From: Niveispirillum cyanobacteriorum
GTDB lineage: Bacteria > Pseudomonadota > Alphaproteobacteria > Azospirillales > Azospirillaceae
Direction: 5' to 3'
NCBI RefSeq assembly: GCF_002868735.1
Contig: NZ_CP025611.1
Coordinates: 2,735,001 to 2,799,000, forward strand
DNA: 64,000 nt
A program made the position numbers and the translations under genes. Within the stretch, counting starts at the first letter, position 1, and each line of letters starts with the position of its first letter. Positions 11,597 through 18,010 of this stretch are shown piece by piece. Under the pieces are notes generated by a model. That model did not search any database and had not been told where the DNA came from. It saw only the letters and a program-made list of their open reading frames with translations.

Positions 11597-11944
11597 TCAG
11601 CCCGCCCGTTCGGGCCGGGCCGTGTGTTGCGGCAGCCGCCAGTCGATCCCTTCCAACAGATAGCCCAACTGGGCCGGGCTCAGCGTCACCGCCCCGTCCA
11701 CCACCGACGGCCAGATGAACCGGCCGCGCTCCAGGCGCTTGGTGAACAGACAAGCCCCCTGGCCGTCATGCCAGATGACCTTCACCAGGTCGCCGCGGCG
11801 ACCGCGAAAGACGAACAGGTGACCGCCATGGGGATCGCGCCCCAGAACCTCCTGGACCTGTCGGGCAAGGCTGTCGAAACCCTTGCGCATGTCCGTCCGG
11901 CCCGTCGCCAGCCACACATGCACCCCCGGCGGGATCGGGATCAT
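11597..11944 (-). CDS. tnpB: IS66 accessory protein TnpB (Orf2)
   Basis: IS66 Orf2 family, 115 residues, MIPIPPGVHVWLATGRTDM with the family motif TDMRKGFDSLA and the conserved VFRGRRGDLVKVIWHDGQG. It is needed for transposition of IS66 elements; the biochemical role is unsettled. It overlaps the end of tnpA by four bases (ATGA), showing translational coupling. Confidence 0.9.
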   Translation of the reverse strand: MIPIPPGVHVWLATGRTDMRKGFDSLARQVQEVLGRDPHGGHLFVFRGRRGDLVKVIWHDGQGACLFTKRLERGRFIWPSVVDGAVTLSPAQLGYLLEGIDWRLPQHTARPERAG

Positions 11945-12369
11945 CCAGCATCTCCGGCTGCCCGGATCACCGCCTTGGCCAGCGCCAGATCCACCGACCC
12001 CCGCAGCCGCACCTCGACCCCGCCGGGCAGAAGCACCGAGATCTCCGCGACCAATGCTGCGGGTGGGCTGGGGGCTGGTATCGTCGCCTCCACGACCGGC
12101 ACGGCCATCGGCTCATCCACAGGCGCAAGCTGGACCGGCGCGAACACCGGAACCGGACTGTCGACCGTCGAAACCGATGCGCCCAATTGCCGACGCCACC
12201 GGTATAGCAGGCTCTCGTGGACCCCGAACCGCCGGGCAACCTCCTTGACCACAATGCCGGGCCTGAACGCCGCCTCCACCAGCCGGGCCTTCTCCGCGTC
12301 CGACCACTTTCGACGCCGCTCGGTGCCCGTCAGAACTTCCAGCCGCTGATAAGCCATCACGTTTGCCAC
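11941..12369 (-). CDS. tnpA: IS66 DNA-binding protein TnpA (Orf1)
   Basis: Small HTH protein of IS66, 142 residues. The N-terminal half (RRKWSDAEKARLVEAAFRP then VARRFGVHESLLYRWRRQ) is an IS3/IS66-type helix-turn-helix. The C-terminal half ends with the conserved VEVRLRGSVDLALAKAVIRA segment. First gene of the IS66 copy 1 operon. Confidence 0.9.
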   Translation of the reverse strand: MANVMAYQRLEVLTGTERRRKWSDAEKARLVEAAFRPGIVVKEVARRFGVHESLLYRWRRQLGASVSTVDSPVPVFAPVQLAPVDEPMAVPVVEATIPAPSPPAALVAEISVLLPGGVEVRLRGSVDLALAKAVIRAAGDAG

Positions 12370-12486: not shown

Positions 12487-12771
12487 ATGACGGGACAGAG
12501 GAAGCGATATTCAGCTGATTTCAAGGCGAAGGTGGCACTGGAGGCGATCCGGGGCGAGTTGACGATGGCGCAGCTTGTGTCGAAGCATGGTGTTCACCAG
12601 ACGATGATCAACGCTTGGCGTAAGCAGGCGATCGAGGGGATGGCGGCGTCGTTTTCTGGCAAGGCCGAGGCCACGCCGCTGGTTGAGGCGGCCGAGATTG
12701 ACCGGCTGCATGCCAAGATCGGTCAGTTGGTTGTGGAGCGGGATTTTTTGCGCAAGGCCTCCGGTCGATGA
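12487..12771 (+). CDS. IS3-family OrfA (HTH protein)
   Basis: Transposase OrfA, 94 residues: RKRYSADFKAKVALEAIRGE with a helix-turn-helix around TMAQLVSKHGVHQTMINAWRKQ and a C-terminal leucine-zipper-like coil (EIDRLHAKIGQLVVERDFLRK). The end overlaps orfB by four bases (ATGA at 12768), the usual place for coupling or frameshifting to an OrfAB fusion. Confidence 0.9.
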   Translation: MTGQRKRYSADFKAKVALEAIRGELTMAQLVSKHGVHQTMINAWRKQAIEGMAASFSGKAEATPLVEAAEIDRLHAKIGQLVVERDFLRKASGR

Positions 12772-13399
12772 GCGCCGGTCGGAGGCGGGAGATGGTGGAT
12801 CGGTCACATCCTGGCTTGTCGGTTGTCCGACAATGCGCCCTGCTGTCGATCAGCCGGTCACATTATTACGGGCCGGTACGGGGCGAGAGTGCTGAGAACC
12901 TAGCGCTGATGCGGCTGATCGATGCCCAGTTCCTGGAAACGCCCTGGTACGGGAGCCGGCAGATGACCCATCATCTGCGGCGCCAGGGTCATGTCGTCAA
13001 TCGCAAGCGGGTGCGCCGGCTGATGGGCCGGATGGGGTTGGCAGCCATCTACCAGCGGCCAAAGACCAGCGTTCCCCACCCAGAGCACAAGATCTGGCCC
13101 TACTTGCTGCGGGATATGACCATCGACCGGCCGGACCATGTCTGGTGTACGGACATCACCTACATTCCCATGCGACGGGGTTTCCTGTACCTGATCGCCG
13201 TGATGGACTGGGCATCGCGCAGGGTGCTGGCCTGGAGGCTATCCAACAGCATGGACATTGATTTCTGCCTGGAGGCCCTGCGGGATGCCATGGCCCGACA
13301 CGGCAAACCGGAAATCTTCAACACCGACAGTCAGTGTATCGAGGCCAGCTATCGGATTGGTCTCACTCCTACTGCGATAGGGCCTATCTTGGCTGACAC

Positions 13400-13570
13400 C
13401 GCAAGGCATCTCGACGCGGCGTGACCCGAACACCGATCGACCCACGACCCGTGTCTTTCCCTGGAACTGTCGGCCGTACGAGATGCTTTGCGGCGAGGTT
13501 TCGCCTCGCTGGCGCATGTGACCCGAGAAGGGCCTGACATTCTGTCACGTGACTGTCTTGTCCAGGCGTC
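13400..13570 (+). ncRNA. Candidate bridge RNA of the IS110 element
   Basis: Four guide-like segments occur in the order known for IS110 bridge RNAs. (1) AACACCGA at 13429-13436 equals the left target half at 13320-13327. (2) CCCTGG at 13459-13464 is complementary to core plus right target half CCAGGG at 14721-14726. Between them lies the hairpin CACG-ACC-CGTG (13443-13453). (3) AGAAGGGC at 13526-13533 equals the element's right end at 14711-14718. (4) TGACTG at 13550-13555 is complementary to core plus left end CAGTCA at 13328-13333. Between these lies the hairpin TGACA-TTC-TGTCA (13535-13547). Segments 1-2 would be the target-binding loop and 3-4 the donor-binding loop. Outer ends of the RNA are not defined by the sequence. 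Confidence 0.8.
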
Positions 13571-13619
13571 CCGCCCTGCGAAACCGCTCACCATCTCGAT
13601 CAATGGTTTCGAAGGGGGC

Positions 13620-14705
13620 ATGATGGTGTTGATTGAAGCTGAACGGACCCGCCGGATCGTCGGTGGCGTCGATACGCACAAGGACCTCCACGTCGCCGCC
13701 GTCGTCGATGAAAGCGACAAACTGCTTGGCACCAGCAGTTTCGCGACCACAAGGCAGGGCTATCGCCAAATGGTGACCTGGATGCGGTCCTTCGGCACAC
13801 TCCACCGCGTGGGGGTCGAGGCCACCGGCACCTATGGTGCTGGCCTGTTACGCCATCTTCAGGCCGCAGGGATAGAAGTCCTGGAAGTGACGTCACCGGA
13901 CAAGGTTGATCGGCGACGACGTGGCAAGAGCGACGATCTCGATGCCGAAGCTGCGGCCCACGCCGCCTTTACCGGTAAGCGTGTTGCCACGCCGAAGCGG
14001 CGCGATGGCATGATCGAAGCCCTGCGTGTTCTCAAGTCCTGCCGGAATACGGCGGTGGCAGCACGTCGCGTTACCCTTCAGATGATCAGCAGTACCATTG
14101 TCGCGGCGCCGGAGGAATTGCGTGACATGTTGCGGACAATGACACGCATGCGACTTGTCCGGACATTGGCTGCTTGGCGGCCCGATCTCACAGACTATCG
14201 CAACCCGCTCTCAGCCTATCGGATCGCGCTGAAATCCCTCGCCCGGCGATATGTCGAATTGCATGATGAGATCGCCGAACTTGATACCATGATCGCAAGT
14301 ATTGTCGGTGAACTCGTCCCCGACCTGGTCGCGCGCAATGCCATCGGCCATGAGACGGCGGCTCAGCTTCTCATCACCGCCGGTGACAATCCGGAGCGGC
14401 TGTCCTCTGAGGCCAGCTTTGCTGCGCTTTGCGGAGTAAGCCCTGTTCCGGCATCGTCCGGGAAAATAGTCAGGCATCGATTGAACCGCGGTGGGGACCG
14501 AGCCGCCAACAGCGCCCTGCACATTATCGCCATCGGTCGTCTTCGGACTGACAGTCGGACCCAGGCCTATGTTGCCCGCCGGATAGCTGACGGGCACTCC
14601 AAGTTAGAAGCTATTCGCTGCCTCAAGCGCTACATCGCCCGGGAGGTCTTTACCATCATCCGAAGGCGACAGCGTGACATCAACGAGACACAGCTCGCTG
14701 CTTGA
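13620..14705 (+). CDS. IS110-family RNA-guided recombinase
   Basis: DEDD-type transposase of IS110, 361 residues from ATG 13620 (the ATG at 13623 is equally possible; GAAGGGGG lies just upstream). The RuvC-like N-terminal domain shows GGVDTHKD (first Asp), GVEATGTYG (Glu) and GKSDDLDAEAAAHA (two Asp). The C-terminal Tnp_20 domain shows GVSPVPASSGKI and NRGGDRAANSALH, the region holding the catalytic Ser. It is full length and uninterrupted. The frame runs open upstream to 13488, but that part is the bridge-RNA region. Confidence 0.93.
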   Translation: MMVLIEAERTRRIVGGVDTHKDLHVAAVVDESDKLLGTSSFATTRQGYRQMVTWMRSFGTLHRVGVEATGTYGAGLLRHLQAAGIEVLEVTSPDKVDRRRRGKSDDLDAEAAAHAAFTGKRVATPKRRDGMIEALRVLKSCRNTAVAARRVTLQMISSTIVAAPEELRDMLRTMTRMRLVRTLAAWRPDLTDYRNPLSAYRIALKSLARRYVELHDEIAELDTMIASIVGELVPDLVARNAIGHETAAQLLITAGDNPERLSSEASFAALCGVSPVPASSGKIVRHRLNRGGDRAANSALHIIAIGRLRTDSRTQAYVARRIADGHSKLEAIRCLKRYIAREVFTIIRRRQRDINETQLAA

Positions 14706-15060
14706 CACATAGAAGGGCTTCCAGGGCGGCCAATTCACCAGCCCGAGGTTCACCGGCATCTTGACCGATGCCGGTATCAAGGTTTCCATGGATGGAAGAG
14801 GCCGCTGGATGGACAATTTGTTCATCGAACGGCTCTGGCGGTCACTGAAATACGAATGCGTCTATCTCCACGCTTTCGAGACCGGCAGCGAGGCCAGGGC
14901 CGGGATCGGACGCTGGATCGATTACTACAATAACCAACGCCCACATTCCGCGCTCGGGGGACAGACACCCGACGAGGCATACAGGCAAAGGGCGGACAGA
15001 CTGTGTTTGGCGGCGTGAACTGAACAGGACCAAGCTTAACGCCGAACAAAAACTGTCCGC

Positions 15061-16940: not shown

Positions 16941-18010
16941 AAGCGGTGTCCATGCTGGGCTGATGGCGGCCGGGTTTGAGATGGTGCTGCTGGAAACCCG
17001 GCTTGTGAAGGCGGCGCTGTCGGCGATGACGGTGAAGACAGACCAGACGGACGCCCGTGGGATTGCGCGCATGGTGCGGATGGGCTGGTACCGGCCGGTG
17101 CATTGCAAGACGGCCAGCGCGCAGGAGGTGCGGGCGTTGCTGGTTGCACGCAAGCTTTTGGTGACCAAGCTCCTGGATCTGGAGTCCTGTATCGGCAGCA
17201 TTCTGGGGGGCGGGCTGAAGACGGGTGCCGTGACCAAGCCCCGGTTCGAGGCCCGGGTCCGTGAACTGATCGCTGGGCATCATCCTATGCTGGGGCAGGT
17301 GATGACGCCGATGCTGGCCGCGCGCGGCGCCATGCGGACGGAGCTTACCAAGCTACACCAGCATCTGATGACGGTTCCCGGCGTCGGGCCGTTTGTGGCG
17401 TTGACCTTCCGCTCGGCGGTAGACAACCCGGCCGGGCTCGCCAATTCGAAGGCGGTAGGCGCACATTTCGGTCTCACACCGACTAAGTATCAGTCGGGTG
17501 AGACCGATGTGACTGAGCGGATCAGCAAGGTCGGCGACGACATGGTAAGCACGGCCTTCTTCGAGGCATCCAGCGCGATGCTGCGTCAGAATATGCGCTT
17601 CTCCAGCCTGAAGCGGCGGGCGATGGAGATTGCCAAGCGCCGGGGGGCTGAAGCGAGCGAAGGTGGCGCTAGCCAGAAAGCTCGCCACCGTCCTGCATCG
17701 CAGGTGGGGTGACGGTACGATCTTCCGCTGGGGCAAGGAGGCGGCGATGGCAGCCTAAAACGAAACTGAGTTCGGGCGGGGGTGCTCCCGCCCTCATGAG
17801 GACCCGACGCCAGGACGCGGGAACCGGTGAACCCGCTTTCCGGGCAGTGCGACGATCAAGGTCGGAAGCACGCGTTTTAGATCGGCTCGCCGGTTCCTCT
17901 TTGACCCCATGATGTGGGGGCGTTGGTGCCGACCACGGACAGAAGCATGAACTCGGCGGCGTGACGTTCGCTCAGGAGGCTTGACACCGAGAGGCCCCAT
18001 GCAGAAGATC
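16941..18010 (+). mobile_element. IS1111-type (IS110 family) remnant
   Basis: A transposase pseudogene (to 17758) followed by about 250 non-coding bases. Part of this 3' end (about 17950-18010) is repeated, inverted and diverged, at about 29465-29530, which marks it as the right end of a multi-copy element. IS1111-group elements carry their guide RNA downstream of the transposase, so this stretch is the place to look. The left end is lost. Confidence 0.7.
16963..17758 (+). pseudogene. IS1111-type transposase, N-terminally truncated and frameshifted
   Basis: The frame reads SGVHAGLMAAGFEMVLLETR (from about 16942), KTDQTDARGIARMVRMGW (the two C-terminal Asp of the DEDD site) and TVPGVGPFVALTFRSAV, typical of IS110/IS1111. 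The first Asp and Glu of the active site are missing upstream. Near 17642-17647 a run of six G shifts the frame. With one G less, the protein would continue [21 protein letters not shown] to GKEAAMAA and stop at 17758. As sequenced, the frame ends at 17712. Inactive. Confidence 0.85.

What the first reader, a model, noticed from the sequence alone, without database searches (positions are those of the whole stretch)
13329..13619. Readable bridge RNA with all four guide segments in an intact IS110
Because this IS110 sits in a gene whose uninterrupted sequence can be rebuilt, target and donor are known to the base. The 5' non-coding end contains, in order, a copy of the left target half (AACACCGA, 13429-13436), the complement of core plus right target half (CCCTGG, 13459-13464), a copy of the element's right end (AGAAGGGC, 13526-13533) and the complement of core plus left end (TGACTG, 13550-13555). 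Each pair flanks a small perfect hairpin (13443-13453; 13535-13547). This is the target loop then donor loop layout established for IS110-family bridge RNAs such as that of IS621. Four matches in the right order and strand sense are very unlikely by chance. The apparent core is a single conserved C.
Basis: partly seen in the sequence, partly recalled or inferred. Interest (0 to 1): 0.85.

Follow-up and report, generated by a model that had tools for sequence, protein, structure and literature searches.

The report
Guide RNA of IS-targeting IS110 element
This small mobile DNA element carries a guide RNA that steers it into the active-site codons of rival transposons, an already known kind of system, but many of its relatives carry two alternative guides that appear to share one common half, which seems to be new.

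Summary
13329-14721 is an IS110 element of the published ISEc21/ISMch6 group, inserted at the codons for the second catalytic Asp of an IS3-family orfB. All four guides lie where stated; target guides, donor guide and 'handshake' bases covary with their DNA across relatives. A second genomic copy sits at the same site of a diverged IS3. This RNA type and target class were published in 2024, so the window element is a new member of a known kind.

What appears new is in relatives: the 5' half of the target loop is duplicated, giving two left guides (LTG1, LTG2) with one right guide. Both 5' arms complement the same 3' arm. Elements with N-type LTG1 (AACAC) and H-type LTG2 sit in N-type sites in 11 of 17 events; elements without an N-type guide in 0 of 29 (weaker after collapsing related elements: 7 of 12 against 0 of 6). 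One genome holds two identical copies, one in each site type. I propose that these RNAs switch between two left guides. The window element keeps a decayed first module and one N-type guide. Guide use is inferred; nothing was tested in cells.

The parts
13329..14721 (+). Whole IS110 element (1393 bp), inserted after GAC and before CAG of an IS3-family orfB
   Evidence: Ends against intact IS3 L025, second copy and relatives
13320..13328 (+). Left target half AACACCGAC (codons N-T-D; D is the second catalytic Asp of IS3 orfB)
   Evidence: (integrase-core matches in ORFs 12768-13424 and 14761-15018); the role of the Asp as in PMC11187229
14722..14727 (+). Right target half CAGGGC (codons Q-G)
13338..13579 (+). 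Stretch folded as the bridge RNA (5' hairpin, target-binding loop, donor-binding loop); true ends unknown
   Evidence: Fold; alignments
13361..13385 (+). Decayed first guide module (remnant LTG1 TACTGCGAT at 13370-13378); intact-looking in dual-guide relatives
   Evidence: Alignment (module identity 10 of 17); upstream arm does not pair with the 3' arm, z -0.1
13401..13425 (+). 5' arm of target-loop stem (GCAAGGCATCTCGACGCGGCGTGAC)
   Evidence: Fold
13429..13437 (+). Left target guide AACACCGAU, pairs 9 of 9 with bottom strand of target (one U-G)
13443..13453 (+). Apical hairpin of target loop
   Evidence: Direct reading
13459..13464 (+). Right target guide CCCUGG, pairs 6 of 6 with top strand CCAGGG
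13465..13466 (+). Target-loop handshake bases AA, matching donor TT of right end TTC; relatives have AC with GTC and AT with ATC
   Evidence: 45 of 45 rows
13469..13491 (+). 3' arm of target-loop stem
   Evidence: Fold
13526..13533 (+). Left donor guide AGAAGGGC, copy of right end 14711-14718
   Evidence: conserved in relatives
13535..13547 (+). Donor-loop hairpin TGACA-TTC-TGTCA
   Evidence: Direct reading
13550..13555 (+). Right donor guide UGACUG, complementary to C-AGTCA of the joined ends
   Evidence: Covariation with left end AGTCA/AGTAA
13620..14705 (+). IS110 transposase/recombinase, 361 aa (DEDD_Tnp_IS110, Transposase_20)
14711..14721 (+). Right end AGAAGGGCTTC (left donor half)

Best explanation
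The window element is an ISEc21-group IS110 whose left end encodes a bridge RNA. Its target loop pairs with the conserved codons around the second catalytic Asp of IS3-family transposases; its donor loop pairs with the element's own joined ends. The recombinase cuts the top strands just after GAY (target) and TC (donor) and exchanges them (shown: guides, ends, covariation; inferred: cutting chemistry, by analogy with IS621). Guides tolerate codon degeneracy partly by wobble (U opposite the Y of GAY). In a large sister group the 5' half of the target loop (stem strand, left guide, apical strand) is duplicated. The RNA can pair either left arm with the single right arm and so offers one of two left guides (for example for N-T-D or H-S-D codons) with one right guide (shown: duplication, arm complementarity, targets split by guide; inferred: that both folds form and both guides are used). 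In the window lineage the first module has decayed and the remaining guide is N-type.
For: Guide-target and guide-donor covariation. A second copy at the same IS3 site in one genome: IS3 flanks differ at 64 of 1138 bases, the stretch 13338-14733 at 17 of 1396, read as two insertions. N-type targets in 11 of 17 events with N-type LTG1 plus H-type LTG2, against 0 of 12 dual events without N-type LTG1 and 0 of 17 single H-type events; Fisher 4e-4 against the former, 9e-7 against both. Identical 1382-bp elements L161 and L167 in one genome, one at CATTCCGAC, one at AACACCGAT. The guide pair AACACCGAT/CACTCCGAT is found at 5 N-type and 2 H-type sites. Arm 1 with 3' arm: 96.1% of cells paired, 26 double-change cells against 9.0 shuffled (0 of 500); slid controls 29-57%. 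The upstream arm complements the 3' arm with z below -3 in 24 of 26 dual left ends (also L078, z -5.2), but z is -2.4 to +2.0 in 15 of 17 left ends scored as single (L031 corrected). Forcing arm 1 onto the 3' arm costs at most 5 kcal/mol in 15 of 22 left ends. L077, with a broken LTG1 (GTT), has a weak arm 1 and sits in an H-type site.
Against: No expression or activity data. Events are related: collapsing left ends at 90% identity leaves 7 of 12 against 0 of 6 (Fisher 0.038), at 85% 5 of 8 against 0 of 4 (0.08), at 80% 3 of 6 against 0 of 4 (0.2). The two stricter covariation measures for arm 1 do not clear the shuffles (pairs changed on both sides 49 of 500, further pair types 124 of 500); the canonical stem does no better there (300 and 382 of 500), and the shuffles do not control for relatedness. 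N-type sites are commoner than H-type in the records searched (12 of 26 against 7 of 26). LTG2 still pairs 5-7 of 9 at N-type sites, so mismatch tolerance is not excluded; for L167 it pairs 7 of 9. At L127 (AACAGCGAT) both guides pair 8 of 9. L125, L080 and L076 sit in N-type sites although forcing arm 1 costs 13.7, 9.9 and 5.8 kcal/mol. RNAalifold prefers the canonical fold with a separate 5' hairpin, and the alternative pairing would cross the outer target stem. L118 and L129, scored as single, also have a complementary upstream arm. L128 has a broken LTG1 but both its arms are weak.
Confidence: 0.57

Rival explanations
1. Ordinary single-guide bridge RNA throughout. LTG1 is a relic of a duplication, and N-type sites are reached by LTG2 with mismatches, because N-type IS3 copies are common in these hosts.
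For: N-type sites are commoner than H-type in the searched records. The published ISEc21 seekRNA is 74 nt and a 58-nt form suffices. LTG2 pairs 7 of 9 at L084 and L167. The target split loses significance when related elements are collapsed hard.
Against: LTG2 pairs 6 or fewer of 9 in 10 of 32 dual events but in 0 of 20 single events, and LTG1 pairs 7-8 in all ten. Letter-shuffled LTG1 never reaches the observed best-of-two pairing over 27 dual events, 0 of 5000. Arm 1 keeps its complementarity although its letters differ from arm 2 in 103 of 406 cells.
Confidence: 0.27
2. LTG1 is a stored spare: recombination or gene conversion between the two modules now and then moves it into the target loop, so the guide is switched genetically rather than by folding.
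For: The window lineage carries in LTG2 position the very guide (AACACCGAT) that relatives carry as LTG1. Both modules share conserved flanks that could recombine.
Against: Identical elements L161 and L167, with unchanged guides, occupy both site types.
Confidence: 0.15

Closest known systems
ISEc21 (IS110 family) with its seekRNA, Siddiquee et al. 2024, PMC11187229
   Same: Same clade (tree; locus L083, annotated as ISEc21 family, 70% protein identity), non-coding RNA upstream of tnp, target at the second catalytic Asp of IS3 transposases, no target duplication (passages)
   Different: Window element uses an N-T-D guide instead of H-S(AGC)-D and has a TTC right end with matching AA handshake bases. 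The ISEc21-like elements L153-L155 show no first module (module identity 4, 7 and 5 of 17).
ISMch6, named in the same paper as natural redirection by three altered guide bases
   Same: Same clade; L067, annotated as ISMch6 family, carries LTG2 CACTCTGAT at site CACTCGGAC
   Different: It also carries an upstream LTG1 CACAGCGAT, the same nine bases as the guide of the ISEc21-like elements L153-L155; the passages read do not mention this, the paper's supplement was not seen
IS621 bridge RNA, Durrant et al. and Hiraizumi et al. 2024 (PMC11208160, PMC11208158)
   Same: Target loop then donor loop, LTG, RTG, LDG, RDG, handshake guides, cut just 3' of the core
   Different: No CT core: target AY, donor TC. 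The sections read describe one left target guide for IS621.

Membership tests
IS110 family, IS110 group | DEDD (RuvC-like) domain plus Transposase_20 domain | tested here: met
   PF01548 E 7.8e-23 and PF02371 E 2.8e-15
IS110 family, IS110 group | Long non-coding left end upstream of tnp, short right end | tested here: met
   291 bp against 16 bp after the stop codon
IS110 family, IS110 group | No duplication of target bases | tested here: met
   Intact IS3 L025 against the two junctions
IS110 family, IS110 group | Bridge RNA with target and donor guides covarying with target and donor | tested here: met
IS110 family, IS110 group | Circular intermediate with junction promoter | not testable with these tools
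   A TTGAC stretch overlaps the tnp stop codon (14702-14706) and is seen in the right ends printed; not assayed
ISEc21 group targeting IS3 orfB | Insertion at the codons of the second catalytic Asp of IS3 transposases | tested here: met
IS621-like | CT core dinucleotide | tested here: not met
   Target AY and donor TC
IS110 bridge RNA with one left target guide | Single LTG per RNA | tested here: met
   Met by the window element (its first module is decayed). Not met by 23 of 40 distinct left ends (27 of 47 events), by a module-identity cut-off of 11 of 17 that I set after seeing the data

The most novel reading that the evidence does not exclude
A natural bistable bridge RNA: a duplicated 5' half of the target loop provides two interchangeable left guides that compete for one shared right half, so one transposon can be aimed at two classes of the same protein motif encoded by different codons (N-T-D or H-S-D, TCN or AGY serine) in rival transposons.
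Probability: 0.4. Interest if true: 0.85.

Novelty: new variant of a known kind. Interest (0 to 1): 0.6.

Why it matters
The window element and its relatives give a natural test of the bridge RNA base-pairing rules (left guide, right guide, donor guides, handshake bases), because the target motif is fixed by protein constraint while its codons vary. If the dual-guide reading is right, bridge RNAs can carry more than one left guide and choose by folding. That would be a new mode of multi-target RNA guidance and a template for two-target recombinases. It also describes a transposon lineage specialised in breaking the active site of other transposons.

Tried and rejected
Rfam scan of the whole window at gathering thresholds: 0 matches. 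Viral contigs by protein: no relatives; by DNA pattern: 10 stretches, of which L153, L154 and L155 were true elements. INPHARED phages with the L072 left end: no match. Considered that the apparent guides are chance: rejected (shuffles and covariation). Considered that the arm 1 complementarity only serves the 5' hairpin: that hairpin is less supported (8 double-change cells, 7 of 500 shuffles as high) than arm 1 with the 3' arm (25, 0 of 500).

Rows dropped or set apart before the counts. L032, L037, L038, L119 and L163: partial matches. L035/L148, L036 and L140/L147: no usable left end. L083, L105/L139 and L138: left end lost, damaged or not found (so no left target). L116/L145: left end truncated. 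L007, L008, L039, L141, L142, L165 and L166: distant relatives; L007, L039, L141 and L142 used only as outgroup. The Niveispirillum lacus copy (L034) has the same left end and target as the window, and the same-genus copy L005 is identical over element and flanks; both were counted as one event with the window. Other identical re-fetches were collapsed likewise. L159 and L124: same insertion as L080, counted once. L080 was missed by the script filter and added by hand. L078 was left out of A3 and A4 because it misaligned in A1. L146 was left out of the RTG test, because its right flank is not an IS3 motif. Five further events (L160, L161, L162, L164, L167) were added and judged dual by eye. 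L122, L132 and L154, whose targets are poor or not clearly IS3, were kept. In one search the script picked a wrong 3' arm for L031; corrected. The protein tree holds partial sequences for L068, L125, L126 and L164.

Full report
What is in the window. The element runs from 13329 (AGTCAG) to 14721 (AGAAGGGCTTC) and splits an IS3-family orfB; integrase-core matches lie in the ORFs 12768-13424 and 14761-15018 on either side. The transposase at 13620-14705 has both IS110 domains. An intact IS3 relative in the same genome shows GAC directly followed by CAGGGC (L025), so the element lies between GAC and CAG without duplicating target bases. The genome is anonymous; a 100%-identical protein lies in Niveispirillum lacus (L034) and in a same-genus genome.

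A second copy. It sits at the same IS3 site elsewhere in the genome. The stretch 13338-14733, nearly all IS110, differs at 17 of 1396 positions, while the left IS3 flank differs at 53 of 848 and the right at 11 of 290. The simplest reading is two insertions into diverged IS3 copies.

The four guides. All stated segments are present, and 0 of 200,000 shuffles of the non-coding end hold all four in order. Across the relatives I tabulated 47 insertion events (dropped rows are listed under Tried and rejected). For 20 events whose RNA has one left guide, that guide pairs on average 8.35 of 9 with its own target and 7.09 with permuted targets (0 of 5000 permutations as high). The right guide also follows the target (42 events, 5.45 of 6 against 5.11, 0 of 5000): for example L077 has CCGCGG with target TCGCGG, and the L073-type RNA has CCCCTG with target CAGGGG at L137. 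The right donor guide follows the left end: AGTCA with GA in 21 of 21, AGTAA with TA in 16 of 17; one further element, L125, starts GGTTA and has GA.

Handshake bases. In IS621 two bases of the target loop pair with the incoming donor strand (PMC11208158, passages). Here right end GTC goes with AC after the right guide in 41 rows, TTC with AA in 2 (the window element and its second copy) and ATC with AT in 2 (one element at two sites): 45 of 45 rows, two independent changes. The window element thus carries its own matched pair of changes.

Exchange point. Left junctions keep the target base C or T of GAY, and right junctions keep the donor C. With IS621 cutting just 3' of the core, the exchange point here is GAY|CAG in the target and TC|AGT in the donor; a CT core is absent.

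What is already known. Siddiquee et al. 2024 (PMC11187229; abstract, and passages through 'find') showed that ISEc21 uses a seekRNA from the upstream non-coding region and targets the codons around the second catalytic Asp of IS3 transposases. They noted ISMch6 as a natural redirection by three altered bases. Durrant et al. 2024 (PMC11208160; abstract, sections 6, 7 and 12, and passages) and Hiraizumi et al. 2024 (PMC11208158; passages) established the bridge RNA layout. The window element belongs in the ISEc21 clade (tree) and is a new member with an N-T-D guide.

What looks new. In 23 of 40 distinct left ends a second copy of the 5' half of the target loop lies upstream: stem strand, GAC or a variant, three bases, a nine-base guide, then usually CGACC. 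I call its guide LTG1 and the known one LTG2. The cut-off (at least 11 of 17 matching bases between modules) was set after seeing the data. The pairs are meaningful codon alternatives: AACAC.GAT (Asn-Thr-Asp) with CACTCCGAT (His-Ser-Asp), or CACAGCGAT (AGC serine) with CACTCTGAT (TCN serine). Four more such left ends, judged by eye, were found later (L160, L161, L162, L164).

Targets follow the pair. With the five added events, elements with an N-type LTG1 and an H-type LTG2 sit in N-type sites in 11 of 17 events. Dual elements whose LTG1 is not N-type do so in 0 of 12, and single elements with an H-type guide in 0 of 17 (Fisher 4e-4 against the former, 9e-7 against both). In all 11 N-type events LTG1 pairs 7-9 of 9 and LTG2 only 5-7; in all 6 H-type events LTG2 pairs 7-9 and LTG1 5-7. 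Fine matches follow too: L143 has LTG1 AACACAGAT with target AATACAGAT, and L162 has LTG1 AATACCGAT with target AATACGGAC. The strongest single case is one genome with two identical 1382-bp copies, L161 at CATTCCGAC/CGCGG and L167 at AACACCGAT/CAGGG. Among 27 dual events, permuting targets gives LTG2 alone 8 of 5000, LTG1 alone 0 and best-of-two 0.

How far kinship weakens this. Collapsing left ends at 95% and 90% identity leaves 8 of 14 against 0 of 6 (Fisher 0.042) and 7 of 12 against 0 of 6 (0.038); at 85% 5 of 8 against 0 of 4 (0.08); at 80% 3 of 6 against 0 of 4 (0.2). The direction holds at each level, but the number of independent lineages is small.

A possible switch. Both 5' arms are complementary to the single 3' arm of the target stem. 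On 26 dual left ends (alignment A4, L078 left out) arm 1 pairs with the 3' arm in 96.1% of cells, with 26 double-change cells against 9.0 in shuffles (0 of 500) and 29-57% pairing when slid by one to three columns. Two stricter measures do not clear the shuffles (49 and 124 of 500); the canonical arm 2 stem, 92.0% paired, does no better on them (300 and 382 of 500), so they have little power here. The two arms differ in letters in 103 of 406 cells, and both still pair in 59 of those, so arm 1 is not simply a copy of arm 2. Forcing arm 1 onto the 3' arm costs at most 5 kcal/mol in 15 of 22 left ends and nothing in four (L092, L126, L144, L146). The upstream arm complements the 3' arm with z below -3 in 24 of 26 dual left ends (L077 -2.2 and L125 -2.4) and z -5.2 in L078. 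Of 17 left ends scored as single, 15 have z between -2.4 and +2.0; the exceptions L118 and L129 (about -5) seem to keep a half-decayed module. The window element scores -0.1.

Reading. I infer that the RNA presents either left guide opposite the one right guide, by exchanging which 5' arm pairs with the 3' arm. The duplication, the complementarity and the target split are shown; the two conformers and their use are inferred. The alternative pairing would cross the outer target stem, so it needs partial unfolding, a pseudoknot or pairing between two RNA molecules (two RNAs are thought to take part in IS621 complexes).

Further weak points. N-type sites are commoner than H-type in the records searched (12 of 26 against 7 of 26 with any match), although three records whose elements have no N-type LTG1 (W01, W02, W21) hold unused N-type sites. 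L125, L080 and L076 sit in N-type sites although forcing arm 1 costs 13.7, 9.9 and 5.8 kcal/mol. RNAalifold prefers the canonical fold with a separate 5' hairpin. The ISEc21 seekRNA is 74 nt, and whether the first module is part of the bound RNA in dual elements is unknown.

Literature limits. Claims of novelty rest on searches in open-access PMC papers and on finds in two main texts. Supplements, preprints and most subscription journals were not seen.

Noticed in passing
13361-13385: Decayed first guide module in the window element (TCTCACTCC..TACTGCGATAGGGCC), matching the position of LTG1 in dual-guide relatives.
   Followed up: yes
13517-13518; L002 (G000:C3:276538-277933): Second genomic copy lacks two bases just before the left donor guide; effect unknown.
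   Followed up: no
16963-17712: ORF for another IS110-family transposase lacking its N-terminal part (Pfam).
   Followed up: no
11597-12369: Two minus-strand ORFs that look like IS66-type accessory genes (recalled resemblance, not tested).
   Followed up: no
L146, right flank of the element: Right end is followed by AGTCAGATC instead of an IS3 motif, possibly a rearranged junction.
   Followed up: no
L122, L132, L154: Three insertions at targets that keep parts of the guide match but do not read as clear IS3 motifs, possible off-target or decayed sites.
   Followed up: no
L067 (ISMch6): Carries LTG1 CACAGCGAT, the same nine bases as the single guide of the ISEc21-like elements L153-L155, upstream of its own LTG2 CACTCTGAT.
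   Followed up: partly
14702-14706 and right ends of relatives: TTGAC overlapping the tnp stop codon, a likely -35 box of the circle-junction promoter.
   Followed up: no
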